Of a stretch of DNA of 62,409 bases, positions 18,389 through 50,384 are shown piece by piece (the first letter of the stretch is position 1; the number at the start of each line of letters is the position of its first letter). Position numbers and translations under genes: made by a program. The notes beneath the pieces were generated by a model. The model ran no database searches. It had not been told where the DNA came from and was given only the letters and a program-made list of their open reading frames with translations. Origin of the DNA: a virus; the IMG/VR virus record IMGVR_UViG_3300001533_000597, positions 1 to 62,409 of that record, one strand, 5' to 3'.

Positions 18389-19750
18389 ATGAATCAAAAA
18401 CATGGTTTAAAAAAACAATATCCTTCTGAGTATAATCTTTGGAGGGATATTAAAAAGCGTGCTTCCGTTAGTGATGATTGGAAAAATAACTTCCCAAATT
18501 TCCTAAATGATATACAGCAATTAGGTTATCAAAAGGGATTAAATTGTATTAGAATTGATGATACATTAGAGTTTAGTAAGGATAATTGTCAATTTGTAAG
18601 TAGGGCAGAACTTAGTCGATTGGTTAAGAATAAATATGGTTCTTCGATATCAGACAAAAGAAAACAAACATGCTTGAAACGCTATGGTTATGAACATCCT
18701 AGCCAATCTCCAACCATTAAACAAAAGGTCAAAAATACGTGCTTAAAAAACTATGGAGTACCATATGGTGTAAATAAGCCAGATTCCTTAAACAAAGCAC
18801 TTAAAGCAAAAGAAGAATTAGGATTAATTACCTTATACGATGGTAAAACCTATGCCCAAATTCATCGAGAAAATCAAACCAATAAAGCATATTCAACTTT
18901 TATTCGACAAAAGAATAAATGGGGCTTAGAATATGCGTTAAGTAAAGCAAAATGGATGAGTAATTTACCGTCAACTGTTACTATATGGTTAGATAATATT
19001 GGCATAGTATATCAAACTGAATTTTGTGTTGGTGATGAGGCGGGCCGCGCAAATAATTATTACGCCGACATATATTGTCCCGACCACAAACTCATTATAG
19101 AATGTGATGGATTATATTGGCATAGTGATGCCATATTAGATAATAAATATCATATCAAAAAACGACAACAATATACCGAATATGGATATACGCCACTATT
19201 TTTTAGAGAAGACGAGCTACAACACAAAATAGAAATAGTCAAGTCAATAATTTTGGCTAGGTGCGGCTTACTCACTAATAAATGTTTCGCCCGCCAAACC
19301 ACGCTAAAAACCGTAGGTAAACAAGAGGCCCGCCAATTTTTTGAGGATAACCATTTAATGGGAGGTGTAGGTCAAGGAGGCCGCTCTATTGGGCTATTTT
19401 ACAATAACAACCTTCTTTCCTGCCTAAGATATAAAAAGAAATATGACGGATGGGAAATAGATAGGTTTTGTAATAGGATAGGCTGGAGTATCGTAGGTGG
19501 TCTATCTCGCCTTATAAAACAATTAGGAGATAAAACAATTACAAGTTTTGTAGACTTAAGATATGGCAATGGCCATTCGTTATCAAAAATAGGATTTGAA
19601 TTAGTAAGTACGTATGCATCTTTTCGATGGTGTGATAGAAAACAAACATTCCATAGATATAAATTTCCACGTAATACAGGATATGATAAGGGACTTTGGA
19701 AAATATGGGACTGCGGACAAGCAAAGTTTATTCGACCACGGCTTAAGTAG
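18389..19750 (+). CDS. Free-standing Vsr-like homing endonuclease
   Basis: 453 aa. N-terminal DNA-binding region with two similar repeats (TCLKRYGYEHPSQS and TCLKNYGVPYGV). Central nuclease core YADIYCPDHKLIIECDGLYWH, then FFREDEL, the layout of the EDxHD/Vsr-related homing endonucleases that occur alone, in introns and beside split inteins. C-terminal domain (FFEDNHLMGGVGQGGRSIG, VGGLSRLIKQLG, FVDLRYGNGHSLSKIGFE) is the GNAT-like module often appended to phage homing enzymes. Inserted just after a terminator, typical of a mobile gene. Target site unknown. Confidence 0.75.
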   Translation: MNQKHGLKKQYPSEYNLWRDIKKRASVSDDWKNNFPNFLNDIQQLGYQKGLNCIRIDDTLEFSKDNCQFVSRAELSRLVKNKYGSSISDKRKQTCLKRYGYEHPSQSPTIKQKVKNTCLKNYGVPYGVNKPDSLNKALKAKEELGLITLYDGKTYAQIHRENQTNKAYSTFIRQKNKWGLEYALSKAKWMSNLPSTVTIWLDNIGIVYQTEFCVGDEAGRANNYYADIYCPDHKLIIECDGLYWHSDAILDNKYHIKKRQQYTEYGYTPLFFREDELQHKIEIVKSIILARCGLLTNKCFARQTTLKTVGKQEARQFFEDNHLMGGVGQGGRSIGLFYNNNLLSCLRYKKKYDGWEIDRFCNRIGWSIVGGLSRLIKQLGDKTITSFVDLRYGNGHSLSKIGFELVSTYASFRWCDRKQTFHRYKFPRNTGYDKGLWKIWDCGQAKFIRPRLK

Positions 19751-38019: not shown

Positions 38020-38261
38020 GAAGGGCTATACGTGTTATTGTGTGTTGGCCAGTAGCATTTGTGGTTTGTTTGATTTGGTATTTATTATTCGTTTGTTTAT
38101 TTTTCATTGGTTATTTAGTATATATAATATTCTCACCATTTGGTTATACCGAAAAAGAAGCACTTGACGGATATGATAGTGAGATGATTTTAAGAACTGA
38201 AAAAATTCTTAATTGGTTTTGTTTGGAAACGAGAAAGGAAAAAGATGAATCAAAAAATTGA
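38004..38261 (+). CDS. Membrane protein
   Basis: 85 aa with a long hydrophobic core (VIVCWPVAFVVCLIWYLLFV and onward, probably two spans) and a charged C-terminus. Overlaps the DNA ligase N-half start by 17 bases. Confidence 0.5.
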   Translation: MENYLGRAIRVIVCWPVAFVVCLIWYLLFVCLFFIGYLVYIIFSPFGYTEKEALDGYDSEMILRTEKILNWFCLETRKEKDESKN

Positions 38262-38967
38262 GTGGCCAACCCTATTTAAAAGGGACCAGTTGGGGCGTAT
38301 TCGCCAATGGACTATATATTGTACTGATAAAATTGGATACCCACAATATGTAGTATCACATGGACTACAAGATGGCAAGTCTCAAAGTACGGCCGTGGAT
38401 ATAATGGTTGGAAAAAACATTGGGAGGGCCAATGAGACGAGTGCTTGGCAGCAATGTGTCAATGAGGCACAAAGTTTATGGCAAAAACAAAAGGATAGAA
38501 AGGGATATGTAGAAAAACTAAATAATCAACAAGATAAAGAAACTAGATTGGTACCACCTATGTTGGCCAAGTCTTATAATCTAGCAGGAAAAGATATAAA
38601 TAAGTTAAAGGACGGGCGGAAAATTGCGTGGCCGGCATATATACAACCGAAGCTAGACGGATGTGTTTCTGGAGATACTTTAATTAAAACCAAAGAGTAT
38701 GGTTATAAAACCATTAAGTGGCTGGTGGAAAATCATATTAAATGTAAAGTTTTATCTCGAAACAAAAATGGAAGATTAGAATATAAATCCATTAGTTCTT
38801 ATTTTCAAAACAAATTAATCAGAGAGAATACACAATGGTATGAAATTGAATTAGAGCGAGGGGAAAAGTTGACCATTACAGGTAATCATCCTGTTTATTT
38901 ACCAGATTTTGATTGTTGGAGGCGTGTAGACCAGTTAGAAGGAAACGAAAATTTGATGTTAGTATGA
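38245..38967 (+). CDS. ATP-dependent DNA ligase N-terminal half fused to N-intein
   Basis: 240 aa. Residues 1-139: ligase N-extein ending at the adenylation motif PKLDG (Lys136 would carry AMP). Residue 140 is Cys1 of an intein: CVSGDTLI block A; LTITGNHPVYL block B (TxxH). The N-intein is 101 residues (38662-38964) and ends at TGA. The other half is encoded at 39066. Alone this product lacks the KLDGxR arginine and all later ligase motifs, so activity should need protein trans-splicing. Confidence 0.9.
   Translation: MNQKIEWPTLFKRDQLGRIRQWTIYCTDKIGYPQYVVSHGLQDGKSQSTAVDIMVGKNIGRANETSAWQQCVNEAQSLWQKQKDRKGYVEKLNNQQDKETRLVPPMLAKSYNLAGKDINKLKDGRKIAWPAYIQPKLDGCVSGDTLIKTKEYGYKTIKWLVENHIKCKVLSRNKNGRLEYKSISSYFQNKLIRENTQWYEIELERGEKLTITGNHPVYLPDFDCWRRVDQLEGNENLMLV
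38662..38964 (+). other. N-terminal half of a naturally split intein
   Basis: 101 codons coding Cys1 through block B and a short tail ending ENLMLV. Size and break point between blocks B and F match known natural split inteins (about 100 residue N part). Confidence 0.85.
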
Positions 38968-38977
38968 AAAATTTTAG

Positions 38978-39082
38978 ATTTCTCCATCTAATGGTTATAA
39001 GGTATTAGTTATTTGGGAACAAGAATATTATGAAAATATTGAGCAGATTAGGGAGAAAATTTTAAATGCTATCAAAAATTAA
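38978..39082 (+). pseudogene. Remnant of a Vsr-like homing endonuclease
   Basis: 34 codons in a frame without start: GYKVLVIWEQEYYENIEQIR then EKILNAIKN and TAA. This is the usual C-terminal end of Vsr-like or related homing endonucleases (GYKVLVIWE). It fills the gap between the two intein halves and overlaps the first codons of the C-intein gene in another frame. The upstream part of the nuclease is gone. Confidence 0.65.
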
Positions 39083-39176
39083 GTCTATTAAGAAACTAAA
39101 TATAAAAACAACTAGATATAATTTAGAAATACAGGATAATCATAATTATTTTGCCAACAATATTTTAGTACATAAT
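39066..39176 (+). other. C-terminal half of the split intein
   Basis: 37 codons with the terminal His-Asn and following Cys needed for Asn cyclisation and extein joining. About 36-37 residues is the usual C-intein length. Confidence 0.85.
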
Positions 39177-39917
39177 TGTAGATGTTTAACCTTAATTACA
39201 AACGATGAAATCATACCATATTCCCGACAGCTTAAAAAGTGGACCAGTCTTTCTCATATCGTAGACGAAATAGTAAAACTTAATTTGCCTGTTGGAACTA
39301 TTCTAGATGGAGAATTATATATTCATGGTGAGGAATTTCAAAATTTAACTTCCGCCATTAAAAGAGATAGTCCTTCCGATAAAACAAAGAGCATTCAGTA
39401 TCATATTTATGATTGTGTGTCCAATAATGATTTCAAAAATAGATATGAATGGCTACAACAAAATATTAAAGATAGCAACATATTAAAACTAGTTCAGTGC
39501 CAAACAATTAGTACTCAAACAGAGATAGAAGCAAAGTTGCAAAAATATTTAGATGCTGGTTACGAAGGTATGATGTTGCGCAATATAAAGGGACCATATA
39601 AAAGCGGTGGACGCTCGTTTGATTTACAAAAGGTAAAGAAATTTATAGATATGGAATTTCCTATTACCGGAGCATATCAAAATAAAGGAAAGATGAAGAA
39701 CCAATGTACATTTGAATGTGCGACCGATGATGGAACAATATTTGGTGTAAAACCAATGGGCTCAGAACAAATGCGTGAGCAATATTGGGCAAATTGGCAA
39801 GATGGTACTATACAGCCGGGGGATTTATTGACAGTACGATTTTTTGCATGGACTACCTCTCAACATCCAGTACCACGATTTCCAGTTGGTGTAGCCATAA
39901 GAAACTATGAAGGATAA
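39066..39917 (+). CDS. C-intein fused to DNA ligase C-terminal half
   Basis: 283 aa. Residues 1-37 form the C-intein (39066-39176): block F YNLEIQDNHNYFANN and block G ILVHN followed by Cys+1. The C-extein begins CRCLTL, restoring KLDG-CR, and carries ligase motif III ILDGELYIHG, IV GYEGMMLRN and V LQKVKKF, then the OB-like tail DLLTVRFF. Joined to the 38245 product by trans-splicing it would give a T7-type ligase of about 385 aa. Confidence 0.9.
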   Translation: MLSKIKSIKKLNIKTTRYNLEIQDNHNYFANNILVHNCRCLTLITNDEIIPYSRQLKKWTSLSHIVDEIVKLNLPVGTILDGELYIHGEEFQNLTSAIKRDSPSDKTKSIQYHIYDCVSNNDFKNRYEWLQQNIKDSNILKLVQCQTISTQTEIEAKLQKYLDAGYEGMMLRNIKGPYKSGGRSFDLQKVKKFIDMEFPITGAYQNKGKMKNQCTFECATDDGTIFGVKPMGSEQMREQYWANWQDGTIQPGDLLTVRFFAWTTSQHPVPRFPVGVAIRNYEG

Positions 39918-46904: not shown

Positions 46905-46976
46905 GGTGGGAATGCAGACTGTCATTCCATATAATACGACGTAAGCAAATATGGAATTCACATGCTCATTCCCACC
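46905..46976 (+). promoter_or_regulatory. Nested inverted repeats upstream of nrdJ
   Basis: Outer arms GGTGGGAATG (46905-46914) and CATTCCCACC (46967-46976); inner arms ATTCCATAT (46924-46932) and ATATGGAAT (46949-46957). In RNA this makes a long two-part hairpin ending 21 bases before the NrdJ ATG; in DNA it could be a dimeric operator. Confidence 0.6.
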
Positions 46977-46997
46977 TATCAAAACAAAGGTACAAAT

Positions 46998-49900
46998 ATG
47001 TCGGCAACTCAAGCACTAATGGATTATACTTTTGTATCTAAATATGCTCGTTGGTTGAAAAATGAGAAAAGAAGAGAAACTTGGGAAGAAGCAGTAAATC
47101 GTGTACGAGAAATGATGCACGAGAAATACGAAGATAAAGATGTACATGAGGATATTGATTTTGCCTATGATATGATGCGGCGTAAACGCGTGTTAGGTAG
47201 CCAACGATGCCTCCAATATGGGGGCCAACCGGCCTTACAAAAAAACGCGCGTGTATTCAATTGTACAGCCTCATATTGTGATAGATTAAGAGTATTTCAA
47301 GAAGCCTTTTGGTTATTATTATGTGGATGTGGAGTTGGATTAAGCATACAAAAACATCATATTAATAAGTTACCTAAATTATCAGACAAGCGATTAAAAG
47401 GAAGAAAAAGAAGTAGTCAAAAGTTTGTTGTACCTGATACTATTGAAGGATGGGCAGACTGTGTTGGTGTACTATTAACTTCCTACTATGATATTCCGGT
47501 TGAAGAACGATTTGAAAAATATGTTGATGCAGAAGTAGAGTTTGATTATAGTAAGATACGCCCAGGGGGGTCTTTTTTAAGTAGCGGCGTCGGAAAAGCT
47601 CCGGGGCCAGATGGATTACGCACCGCAGTTAAAAATATACAACAATTGTTGGATGCTCGCATAAATGAAGGTCGTACTAAGCTGGCTCCTATAGATTGTG
47701 GTGATATATTTCTACATACAGGAGAGGCAACTTTATCTGGAGGCGTTCGCAGAAGTTCGGGTATCCTACTATTTTCTGCTGATGATAAGGATATGAGGTT
47801 ATGTAAAACGGGTAACTGGTTACAAAATCATCCACAACGGGCCCGTGCCAATATTTCCGAGGTATTACATCGGGAAACTACCGACTATGATTCTTTTAAG
47901 GATATCATTCAATATACTAAGGAATATGGAGACCCAGGATTTATGTGGGTTGATGATTTAGAAGAATTAAGAAATCCTTGTGTAACTAAAGATACTATGA
48001 TAGTTACAAAGGATGGACTAGATTGTGTAGAACATCTAAATACAAATAAATCTTATTTTACAACTATTGTAGATGGTGAAAAATATAATTCAACATTCTT
48101 TTATCAGACAGGAAATAAACCAGTATATGAAGTACAGTTTAAATCTGGTAGAATATTAAAATTAACTGGGAACCATCGTATAATGAGAAATGATGGGGTT
48201 TGGAAAAAACTAGATGATTTAAATATTGGTGATAAAGTAAAGGTTCATAACCATCGTGAATTACTAAAAAATATTGATAGGAATTCTAAAGAATATGCAC
48301 AAGGATATTGTTTAGGACATATAATAGGTGATGGATATTTATCACATACTGATAAAAGCGCTCACATGTGTTGGTGGGGTAAAGATAGATGGGACCAAAG
48401 AACTAGAGGTTTTGAATTATTAAATCAGGCTCATTTTGACAGTAACTCCCAATATAAAAAAGTTAAACATAATAATGTTAGAGCAAGTATACAGTCTACA
48501 AAATTATATAGCTTTTTAGACAACCAAGGGTGTATAGCTAATAAAGAATTAACAATACAATCTATTTGTGGCAATTGGTCATATTTATCAGGTTTACTAG
48601 CTGGATATTTTGATGCTGATGGGTATGTAGTCAGCAACACCGACAAGGGATGCTGTGTCCGTTTAACCTCTATAAGTTTAAGTAACTTACAATTAGTACA
48701 AAATATATTAAATGCATTTGGAATCAATTCAACTATCTATAAAAATCGTTTACAAGAGGGATATTATAAATTACCAGATGGACATGGTGATTTAAAACAA
48801 TATTGGTGTAATACCCAACATGACCTACATATTTCTAAAGACAATTTAGTAATTTTACGGAATATTATTAAATTTGAGCAACCGCATAAAGAAAGGTTGC
48901 TAAATGACATCATAGATTCTTATATCCGAAAGCCATATAGAGATAAATTTGAAGATACTATAGAGTCCATTTCTTTATTGCCAGAAGAAGATGTGTTTGA
49001 TTGTACAGTATCAGATATAGAAGCCTTTAGTGCTAATGGAGTATATGTACATAATTGTGGTGAAATTGGAATGTGGGCCTATGACATTATAGATGAAGAT
49101 AAATTTAATAAGTTCTTGGAGAATTATGATGGACAAGGTTACAAAAGAAACAATAAAAACATTGGATTGGAGTCAGGATGGCAAATGTGCAATTTGGGAA
49201 CCATTAACGCCCCCACAGTTAGAACTATTGAAGAATATCATGAGTGGGGACGTGCCGCTGCCATTATCACTACGTTGCAATCTGGATTCACAGAGTTTGG
49301 TTATCTTACTCCTGCATCGAAACATATTTGCGAGCGTGAATCGCTTATCGGAGTCTCAATTACAGGAATAATGGAGAATGAAGAATTAATATTAGAATCT
49401 AGTAATCAGCGTAAAGTTGCCAGAACAATTAAACAAGTTAATACAGAAATAGCAAATAAAATTGGTATTAATCCAGCCGCACGGTGTACTACTATTAAAC
49501 CTGAAGGTACTGGTTCTCTCGTTTTGGGTGTATCATCGGGAATACATCCACATCATTCCAAAAGATATTTAAGACGCATACAGGCCAACATTACTGAGAA
49601 TCCCTATCAACATTTTAAAACCACGAACCCCCTAGCTTGTGAAAAATCTGTTTGGGCCGCTAATGATACCGATGAAATAGCTTTATTCCCTATCGAGGTT
49701 AAAGATGGAGCCAAATTAAAAAATCAGTTACCGGCACTAACATTACTGGAAATAGTGAAAAGCCTACAACAGAATTGGATACGTGTAGGTAAAACCGAAG
49801 AATTATGTACACGACCCTGTTTGTCTCATAATGTAAGTAATACTATACAGGTTAAACCTGATGAGTGGGATGAAGTAACCCTATGGATTTATAGAAACCG

Positions 49901-50384
49901 TAATTATATTAGTGGTATTACCTTATTGCCTCAAAGTGGTGATAAAGACTATCCACAAGCACCATTTACGGCCGTATATTTACCACACGAGATAGTCCGA
50001 GAATATGGAGATGCCGCCCTATGGACTTCTGGACTTATTGAAATTGGATTACGCGCTTTTAATAATAATTTATGGTCTGCCTGTGATTTTGTCCTAATAC
50101 CAGAACAACAAGACAATTTGAAACTAGAAAAGAAAAGTTTAAAACTAAATAAGGCTGCACTAAAATTTGAGTTCGTAGAAAAAATGGAAAAGTTTGCCAA
50201 TAAATACTTTGATAATGATGTGCGGCGATTAACATATTGTATGAAGGACGTATTCAATTGGAAATTATATCACGATTTAAAAAAAACATTTAAAGCTGTA
50301 GATTATACTACTATGAGAGAAGACGAAGATAATACTAAACCCGAGGCTGAACCCGCCTGTGCTGGTGGAGCTTGCTTCCTATGA
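46998..50384 (+). CDS. nrdJ: Class II (cobalamin-dependent) ribonucleotide reductase with intein
   Basis: 1128 codons from ATG 46998 (AAAGG upstream; the frame extends to 46962). NrdJ-type: VFNCTASYCDRL, LLLCGCGVGLSIQKHH, LRNP|CGEIGMW with the thiyl-radical Cys in NPCGE, and C-terminal CAGGACFL redox cysteines. It resembles the monomeric triphosphate reductase group. A 359-codon intein sits between NP and CGE. After splicing the enzyme is about 769 aa. Needs adenosylcobalamin and makes deoxynucleotides without oxygen dependence. No NrdB is needed or seen. Confidence 0.88.
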   Translation: MSATQALMDYTFVSKYARWLKNEKRRETWEEAVNRVREMMHEKYEDKDVHEDIDFAYDMMRRKRVLGSQRCLQYGGQPALQKNARVFNCTASYCDRLRVFQEAFWLLLCGCGVGLSIQKHHINKLPKLSDKRLKGRKRSSQKFVVPDTIEGWADCVGVLLTSYYDIPVEERFEKYVDAEVEFDYSKIRPGGSFLSSGVGKAPGPDGLRTAVKNIQQLLDARINEGRTKLAPIDCGDIFLHTGEATLSGGVRRSSGILLFSADDKDMRLCKTGNWLQNHPQRARANISEVLHRETTDYDSFKDIIQYTKEYGDPGFMWVDDLEELRNPCVTKDTMIVTKDGLDCVEHLNTNKSYFTTIVDGEKYNSTFFYQTGNKPVYEVQFKSGRILKLTGNHRIMRNDGVWKKLDDLNIGDKVKVHNHRELLKNIDRNSKEYAQGYCLGHIIGDGYLSHTDKSAHMCWWGKDRWDQRTRGFELLNQAHFDSNSQYKKVKHNNVRASIQSTKLYSFLDNQGCIANKELTIQSICGNWSYLSGLLAGYFDADGYVVSNTDKGCCVRLTSISLSNLQLVQNILNAFGINSTIYKNRLQEGYYKLPDGHGDLKQYWCNTQHDLHISKDNLVILRNIIKFEQPHKERLLNDIIDSYIRKPYRDKFEDTIESISLLPEEDVFDCTVSDIEAFSANGVYVHNCGEIGMWAYDIIDEDKFNKFLENYDGQGYKRNNKNIGLESGWQMCNLGTINAPTVRTIEEYHEWGRAAAIITTLQSGFTEFGYLTPASKHICERESLIGVSITGIMENEELILESSNQRKVARTIKQVNTEIANKIGINPAARCTTIKPEGTGSLVLGVSSGIHPHHSKRYLRRIQANITENPYQHFKTTNPLACEKSVWAANDTDEIALFPIEVKDGAKLKNQLPALTLLEIVKSLQQNWIRVGKTEELCTRPCLSHNVSNTIQVKPDEWDEVTLWIYRNRNYISGITLLPQSGDKDYPQAPFTAVYLPHEIVREYGDAALWTSGLIEIGLRAFNNNLWSACDFVLIPEQQDNLKLEKKSLKLNKAALKFEFVEKMEKFANKYFDNDVRRLTYCMKDVFNWKLYHDLKKTFKAVDYTTMREDEDNTKPEAEPACAGGACFL
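47979..49055 (+). other. Intein with LAGLIDADG homing endonuclease in NrdJ
   Basis: 359 codons. Cys1 (CVTKDTMI), block B LKLTGNHRIM, two LAGLIDADG helices (CLGHIIGDGYL and LAGYFDADGYV), blocks F/G DVFDCTVSDIEAFSANGVYV, HN then Cys+1. Cys+1 is the catalytic Cys of the reductase, so any imprecise loss destroys the enzyme. Both splicing and endonuclease motifs look intact. Confidence 0.88.

What the first reader, a model, noticed from the sequence alone, without database searches (positions are those of the whole stretch)
38245..39917. DNA ligase split inside its active-site motif by a natural split intein
Two genes separated by 98 bases encode ligase residues up to KLDG plus a 101-residue N-intein, and a 37-residue C-intein plus the rest of the ligase beginning CR. 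Joining them restores KLDGCR and all later ligase motifs. The break point and the lengths of both halves match known trans-splicing inteins. Neither half should seal DNA alone, so replication would depend on protein trans-splicing.
Basis: partly seen in the sequence, partly recalled or inferred. Interest (0 to 1): 0.85.

Follow-up and report, generated by a model that had tools for sequence, protein, structure and literature searches.

The report
Phage DNA ligase split by intein
A virus of bacteria encodes its DNA-sealing enzyme as two separate half-proteins that should be stitched together by a split self-splicing element, and the gap between the halves still holds the fossil tail of the selfish DNA-cutting gene that sits there in related viruses.

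Summary
ORF 38245-38967 holds the first 139 ligase residues, ending PKLDG, plus a 101-residue N-intein. ORF 39066-39917 holds a 37-residue C-intein plus the remaining 246 ligase residues, starting CR. The 98-base gap cannot be closed by a 1-2 base indel.

Joining the exteins gives a full ATP-dependent DNA ligase domain, raising the Pfam score from 71 to 90 bits. A syntenic relative (L002) has the same ligase unbroken. The split is natural: eleven related loci, counting this one, split the ligase between KxDG and C. In eight, an intact free-standing Vsr/DUF7487-type endonuclease gene lies between the halves.

In the window that gene is gone except for its last ~31 codons, readable at 38978-39082. 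Two other loci keep different endonuclease remnants. So this is a 'fractured gene' (Dassa et al. 2009) that has lost its endonuclease, an intermediate towards a clean split intein. A distinct, contiguous LAGLIDADG intein lineage uses the same site in nine other phages.

Trans-splicing is very likely but unshown. That phage replication depends on it is not shown: the record is a fragment and bacterial hosts have their own ligase. It is a new member of a known kind.

The parts
38245..38661 (+). N-extein: ligase residues 1-139, ending with the catalytic-lysine motif K136-L-D-G139
   Evidence: aligned with the unbroken ligase of L002, 46% identical over this part
38662..38964 (+). N-intein, 101 aa: Cys1 (block A CVSGDTLI), block B T-G-N-H; ends ...VDQLEGNENLMLV
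   Evidence: TIGR01445 42.1 bits; PF14890 and PF01079; nearest solved structure Npu DnaE split intein
38965..38967 (+). TGA stop ending the N-half, at the same place as in the other split ligase loci
38978..39082 (+). Remnant of the C-terminal ~31 codons of a Vsr/DUF559/DUF7487-type homing endonuclease (ISPSNGYKVLVIWEQEYYENIEQIREKILNAIKN*), no start codon, catalytic part lost, overlapping the start of the C-half by 17 nt
   Evidence: hmmsearch with six intact endonucleases: third best of 1894 frames, E 3.5e-4, aligned at profile 268-298 of 298; 0 of 2000 gap shuffles reach the score, best 6.2 against 16.6 bits; PF04480 C-terminal end, E 0.016
39066..39176 (+). C-intein, 37 aa: block F (YNLEIQDNHNYFA), block G (ILVHN) with penultimate His and terminal Asn
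   Evidence: TIGR01443 24.2 bits, PF14890 121-155/155, alignment
39177..39917 (+). C-extein: ligase from +1 Cys and motif-I Arg (CR) through motifs III (DGELY), IIIa, IV (EGMMLR), V (LQKVKKF) and the OB domain, with stop
   Evidence: PF01068 71.3 bits; structure model matches ATP-dependent DNA ligases, best 6imk E 3.5e-16

Best explanation
This is a phage ATP-dependent DNA ligase gene broken inside catalytic motif I (KxDG^C-R) by a natural class-1 split intein. Shown from sequence: two separate ORFs, all intein splicing motifs, a complete ligase when the exteins are joined, and a dead endonuclease tail between the halves. Inferred: the two halves are translated separately, the 101-aa IntN and 37-aa IntC associate, and an N-to-S acyl shift at Cys1, transfer to Cys+1, Asn cyclisation and an S-to-N shift release a 385-aa ligase with an intact KLDGCR. 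Inferred history: the element arrived by homing as a 'fractured gene' cassette (N-intein / free-standing Vsr-like endonuclease / C-intein). The endonuclease was then deleted except for its last ~31 codons, which overlap the start of the C-half, leaving a split intein that can no longer move by itself.
For: Intein and ligase profile matches of the halves and of the joined products. Cys1, TxxH, HN and Cys+1 conserved in the alignments of eight split ligases (+1 is Ser in L008). Lengths of 101/37 aa match the 102/36 of Npu DnaE and 101/36 of Cfa tabulated in PMC11766414. N-half model best matches Npu DnaE, C-half model matches DNA ligases. Same split site with an intact endonuclease between the halves in L004, L008, L009, L011, L016, L034, L129, L132. 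Endonuclease remnants in the window, L010 and L131. Unbroken ligase at a syntenic place in L002. Intein and ligase trees disagree: window intein with L034 (95/91), window ligase with intein-free L002 (100/99), as expected of a mobile element.
Against: No splicing, expression or ligase activity was tested. The remnant is short (34 residues, 16.6 bits). No cultured phage with this split ligase was found. The record is an uncultured contig of unknown host.
Confidence: 0.9

Rival explanations
1. The two halves assemble non-covalently into a working ligase, and the intein parts only act as a docking handle; splicing itself is lost.
For: Non-covalent gene-in-pieces enzymes exist: PMC2988022 reports a split nrdA product that keeps function.
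Against: All four splicing positions (Cys1, TxxH, His-Asn, Cys+1) are kept here and in relatives. Unspliced intein sequence would sit next to the adenylation lysine.
Confidence: 0.06
2. Assembly or sequencing error: the phage really has one continuous ligase gene with a mini-intein.
For: The contig comes from a metagenome; no raw reads were available.
Against: No 1-2 base indel joins the frames. The stop falls at the natural split point used by ten other loci, and the gap encodes an endonuclease tail in a third frame.
Confidence: 0.02
3. Decaying pseudogene: the split ligase no longer works and the phage uses another ligase (host or in the missing part of its genome).
For: The endonuclease has decayed. 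The record is an incomplete linear contig.
Against: Both ligase halves are open with all motifs intact. The loss affects only the endonuclease.
Confidence: 0.04

Closest known systems
'Fractured genes' with split inteins and a free-standing Vsr-like endonuclease (Dassa et al. 2009, NAR 37:2560; cited in PMC3229294, PMC11766414; the paper itself is not held, its content is from memory)
   Same: Phage DNA-metabolism gene cut by a split intein at an active-site motif. Relatives at the very same site carry a free-standing endonuclease gene between the halves, related to Vsr/DUF559.
   Different: In the window the endonuclease is lost and only its C-terminal tail remains. Whether DNA ligase was among the eight enzyme types of that paper could not be checked.
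Natural split inteins of DnaE (Npu, Ssp, Cfa)
   Same: N- and C-parts of about 101 and 37 aa, Cys1 and Cys+1, no endonuclease gene between. N-half model matches Npu DnaE first.
   Different: Different host protein, insertion site and genome (phage). The halves are adjacent, 98 bases apart, and a trace of the endonuclease remains.
Split PolB intein of phage MIJ3 with an HNH endonuclease between the halves (PMC6892783)
   Same: Phage replication gene, split intein with an endonuclease gene at the split.
   Different: PolB instead of ligase; HNH instead of Vsr-like; endonuclease present.
Contiguous DNA ligase intein of Halobacteria (PMC4071816)
   Same: Intein in an ATP-dependent DNA ligase.
   Different: Contiguous, archaeal host gene; insertion site not compared here.

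Membership tests
Natural split intein (class 1) | N-fragment with nucleophile at position 1 and block B TxxH | tested here: met
   Cys1 and T-G-N-H conserved; TIGR01445 42.1 bits over cut-off
Natural split intein (class 1) | C-fragment with blocks F and G, His-Asn end, and Cys/Ser/Thr at +1 | tested here: met
   ...NHNYFANNILVHN|C; TIGR01443 24.2 bits over cut-off
Natural split intein (class 1) | Two separate genes whose exteins join into one conserved protein | tested here: met
   Stop and 98-nt gap; joined ligase 89.7 bits over the full PF01068 domain; unbroken relative L002
Natural split intein (class 1) | Protein trans-splicing activity | not testable with these tools
   Needs expression of the two halves
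Fractured gene (split intein plus free-standing endonuclease between halves) | Intact endonuclease gene between the halves | tested here: not met
   Only a C-terminal tail at 38978-39082 is left; intact in eight relatives at the same site
Fractured gene (split intein plus free-standing endonuclease between halves) | Interrupted gene is a conserved DNA-metabolism enzyme, cut at a conserved motif | tested here: met
   DNA ligase motif I KxDG^C in 11 split loci
ATP-dependent DNA ligase | KxDGxR, motifs III, IIIa, IV, V and OB domain in order after joining | tested here: met
   PF01068 1-204/204, alignments, fold match; the OB family PF14743 is found only below its cut-off

The most novel reading that the evidence does not exclude
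The KxDG^C site of phage DNA ligases is a hot spot occupied by two separate intein lineages (split with a Vsr-like free-standing endonuclease, and contiguous with LAGLIDADG). At this one site every step from fractured gene to endonuclease-free split intein is preserved, including at least three separate endonuclease losses (window, L010, L131). In two of these the endonuclease tail is kept, perhaps because it overlaps the start of the downstream half.
Probability: 0.6. Interest if true: 0.6.

Novelty: new member of a known kind. Interest (0 to 1): 0.48.

Why it matters
It gives a series of natural intermediates for how split inteins arise: a mobile endonuclease breaks an intein gene, the element spreads, and the endonuclease then decays while trans-splicing keeps the gene working. 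It also adds a family of about a dozen new natural split inteins, all at the same ligase site, that could be tested as protein-ligation tools. The site separates the adenylation lysine from the rest of the active site, so trans-splicing should act as an on-switch for the ligase, which can be assayed directly.

Tried and rejected
Single-protein searches of viral contigs with the N-half found nothing; the two-row and eight-row alignments were needed. A scan of 84,980 prokaryote genomes with the N-half alignment found no relative. The Ochrobactrum phage OC hit that reached into the C-intein (H10) is an unbroken ligase. The Pseudaeromonas phage KLEP7 intein is in an RNA ligase at a different place. 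L018 looked like a further case, but its reading frame runs into unrelated sequence and its contig has no PF01068 match. Frameshift error tested and rejected. The AlphaFold model of the N-half is weak in the intein part (pLDDT 51-71) and is used only as support. Dassa 2009 could not be read.

Full report
OBSERVATION. The window is one linear IMG/VR virus record of 62,409 bases. At 38245-38967 an ORF of 240 aa ends ...QPKLDG | CVSGDTLIKT...NENLMLV. At 39066-39917 an ORF of 283 aa begins MLSKIKS...NHNYFANNILVHN | CRCLTLI. The gap is 98 bases. The first part of the split carries the intein N-terminal splicing region (TIGR01445, 42.1 bits, cut-off 24.5), the second the intein C-terminal region (TIGR01443, 24.2 bits, cut-off 15.6) and an ATP-dependent DNA ligase domain (PF01068, 71.3 bits). 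Joining the intein parts gives PF14890 at 51.3 bits (cut-off 35.8); joining the exteins gives PF01068 at 89.7 bits over the full 204-position profile. The adenylation lysine (KLDG) is in one half and all later ligase motifs are in the other.

NOT AN ARTEFACT. Removing or adding 1-2 bases anywhere near the gap never joins the frames. The stop codon lies at the same alignment position as in other split ligases (...VDELTENDVLMLE*...VDQLSGDEKLMEY*, here ...VDQLEGNENLMLV*), and the C-half starts at the corresponding place. Structure models are of modest confidence, but the N-half matches Npu DnaE split intein first (E 5e-5) and the C-half matches DNA ligases (E 3.5e-16).

THE GAP. Read in the third frame, the gap encodes ISPSNGYKVLVIWEQEYYENIEQIREKILNAIKN*. 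In L004, a 197-kb phage contig with the same split ligase, the gap holds an intact 304-aa endonuclease gene of the DUF7487/DUF559 (Vsr-like) type that ends ...GFEVIELWEHDIKTNLSIIKEQLYEKI... and overlaps the start of the C-half. A profile of six such intact endonucleases finds the window gap at E 3.5e-4 among 1894 open frames, aligned exactly to the profile's last 31 positions. The only better hits are a full-length relative at 18389-19750 and the gap of L010. None of 2000 dinucleotide shuffles of the gap comes near the score (best 6.2 against 16.6 bits). The remnant has no start codon and none of the catalytic part.

RELATIVES. At the same KxDG^C site I found the following. Split with intact endonuclease: L004, L008, L009, L011, L016, L034 and, in a second ligase subfamily, L129 and L132. 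Split with decayed endonuclease: the window, L010 (C-terminal tail SSLGYNVEVVWDDEITSKRIQEILNKYEN) and L131 (fragment of the N-terminal half with in-frame stops, 53% identity over 40 aa to the L129 endonuclease, E 4e-10). Contiguous inteins of 350-360 aa: L012, L013, L014, L017, L019, L021, L026, L029, L039; the two scanned, L012 and L021, match LAGLIDADG. No intein: L002, L003, L007, L022, L028, L031-L033, L111. L002 is syntenic with the window (glycosyltransferase, ligase, sigma-70-like gene, one further gene) and has an unbroken 380-aa ligase.

HISTORY. In the intein tree the contiguous inteins form one group (100/99) apart from the split ones, and the window's intein pairs with that of L034 (95/91). 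In the ligase tree the window pairs with intein-free L002 (100/99), and the three states need at least eight changes. Disagreement between intein and ligase trees is what horizontal movement (homing) predicts; with 21-26 sequences, many open branches and no root, gains and losses cannot be told apart. Whether the losses in the window, L010 and L131 are independent is inferred from their different remnants and their scattered places in the trees.

MECHANISM. Separate translation of the two halves, association of IntN and IntC, and class-1 trans-splicing to a 385-aa ligase is the best reading; every required residue is present, but splicing is inferred. The record holds no other DNA ligase domain of the ATP or NAD type, but it is a fragment, and bacterial hosts have their own NAD-dependent ligase (general knowledge).

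KNOWN KIND. Fractured genes with split inteins and Vsr-like endonucleases were described by Dassa et al. 2009 (not held; cited in PMC3229294 and PMC11766414; content from memory). A split PolB intein with an HNH endonuclease is described for phage MIJ3 (PMC6892783), and a contiguous ligase intein for one haloarchaeon (PMC4071816). In the papers I could search I found no report of a split intein in a phage DNA ligase, but I cannot exclude that Dassa et al. list one. I file the finding as a new member of a known kind; the endonuclease-stripped state with its remnant is the part most likely to be new.

Noticed in passing
46962-50384: Adenosylcobalamin-dependent ribonucleotide reductase with a contiguous 359-aa LAGLIDADG intein (NP|CVTKD...YVHN|CGE).
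   Followed up: partly
18389-19750: Free-standing 453-aa DUF7487/DUF559 (Vsr-like) endonuclease gene of the same family as those inside the fractured ligases.
   Followed up: partly
1-1002: 5'-truncated T4 Rnl1-like RNA ligase at the contig edge, not interrupted.
   Followed up: no
38245-38520: The N-terminal part of the ligase weakly resembles WGR DNA-binding domains in fold (PARP1 WGR, probability 0.93 but E 0.94); no Pfam match.
   Followed up: no
L006 2680-5489: DinG-like helicase gene split by a split intein, with another gene, possibly an endonuclease, between the halves.
   Followed up: no
L115 3075-6185 (Pectobacterium phage Ymer): Helicase split after DEC (motif II region) by a split intein with a LAGLIDADG endonuclease gene between the halves; annotated as hypothetical protein, homing endonuclease and DNA helicase. 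Four other Pectobacterium phages hit the same N-intein.
   Followed up: partly
L114 2991-5114 (phage KLEP7): Contiguous intein inside an RNA ligase of a cultured phage, at SGEWAG|C rather than KxDG.
   Followed up: partly
L128, L130: Further ligase N-halves with N-intein (KYDG|CLS) near contig edges; no C-half was seen, and the 11.8-kb L128 contig has no PF01068 match.
   Followed up: partly
L040-L049, L071, L078 and others: Many other split C-inteins, on helicase-like, terminase-like and other exteins, without a DUF7487-type endonuclease directly upstream.
   Followed up: no
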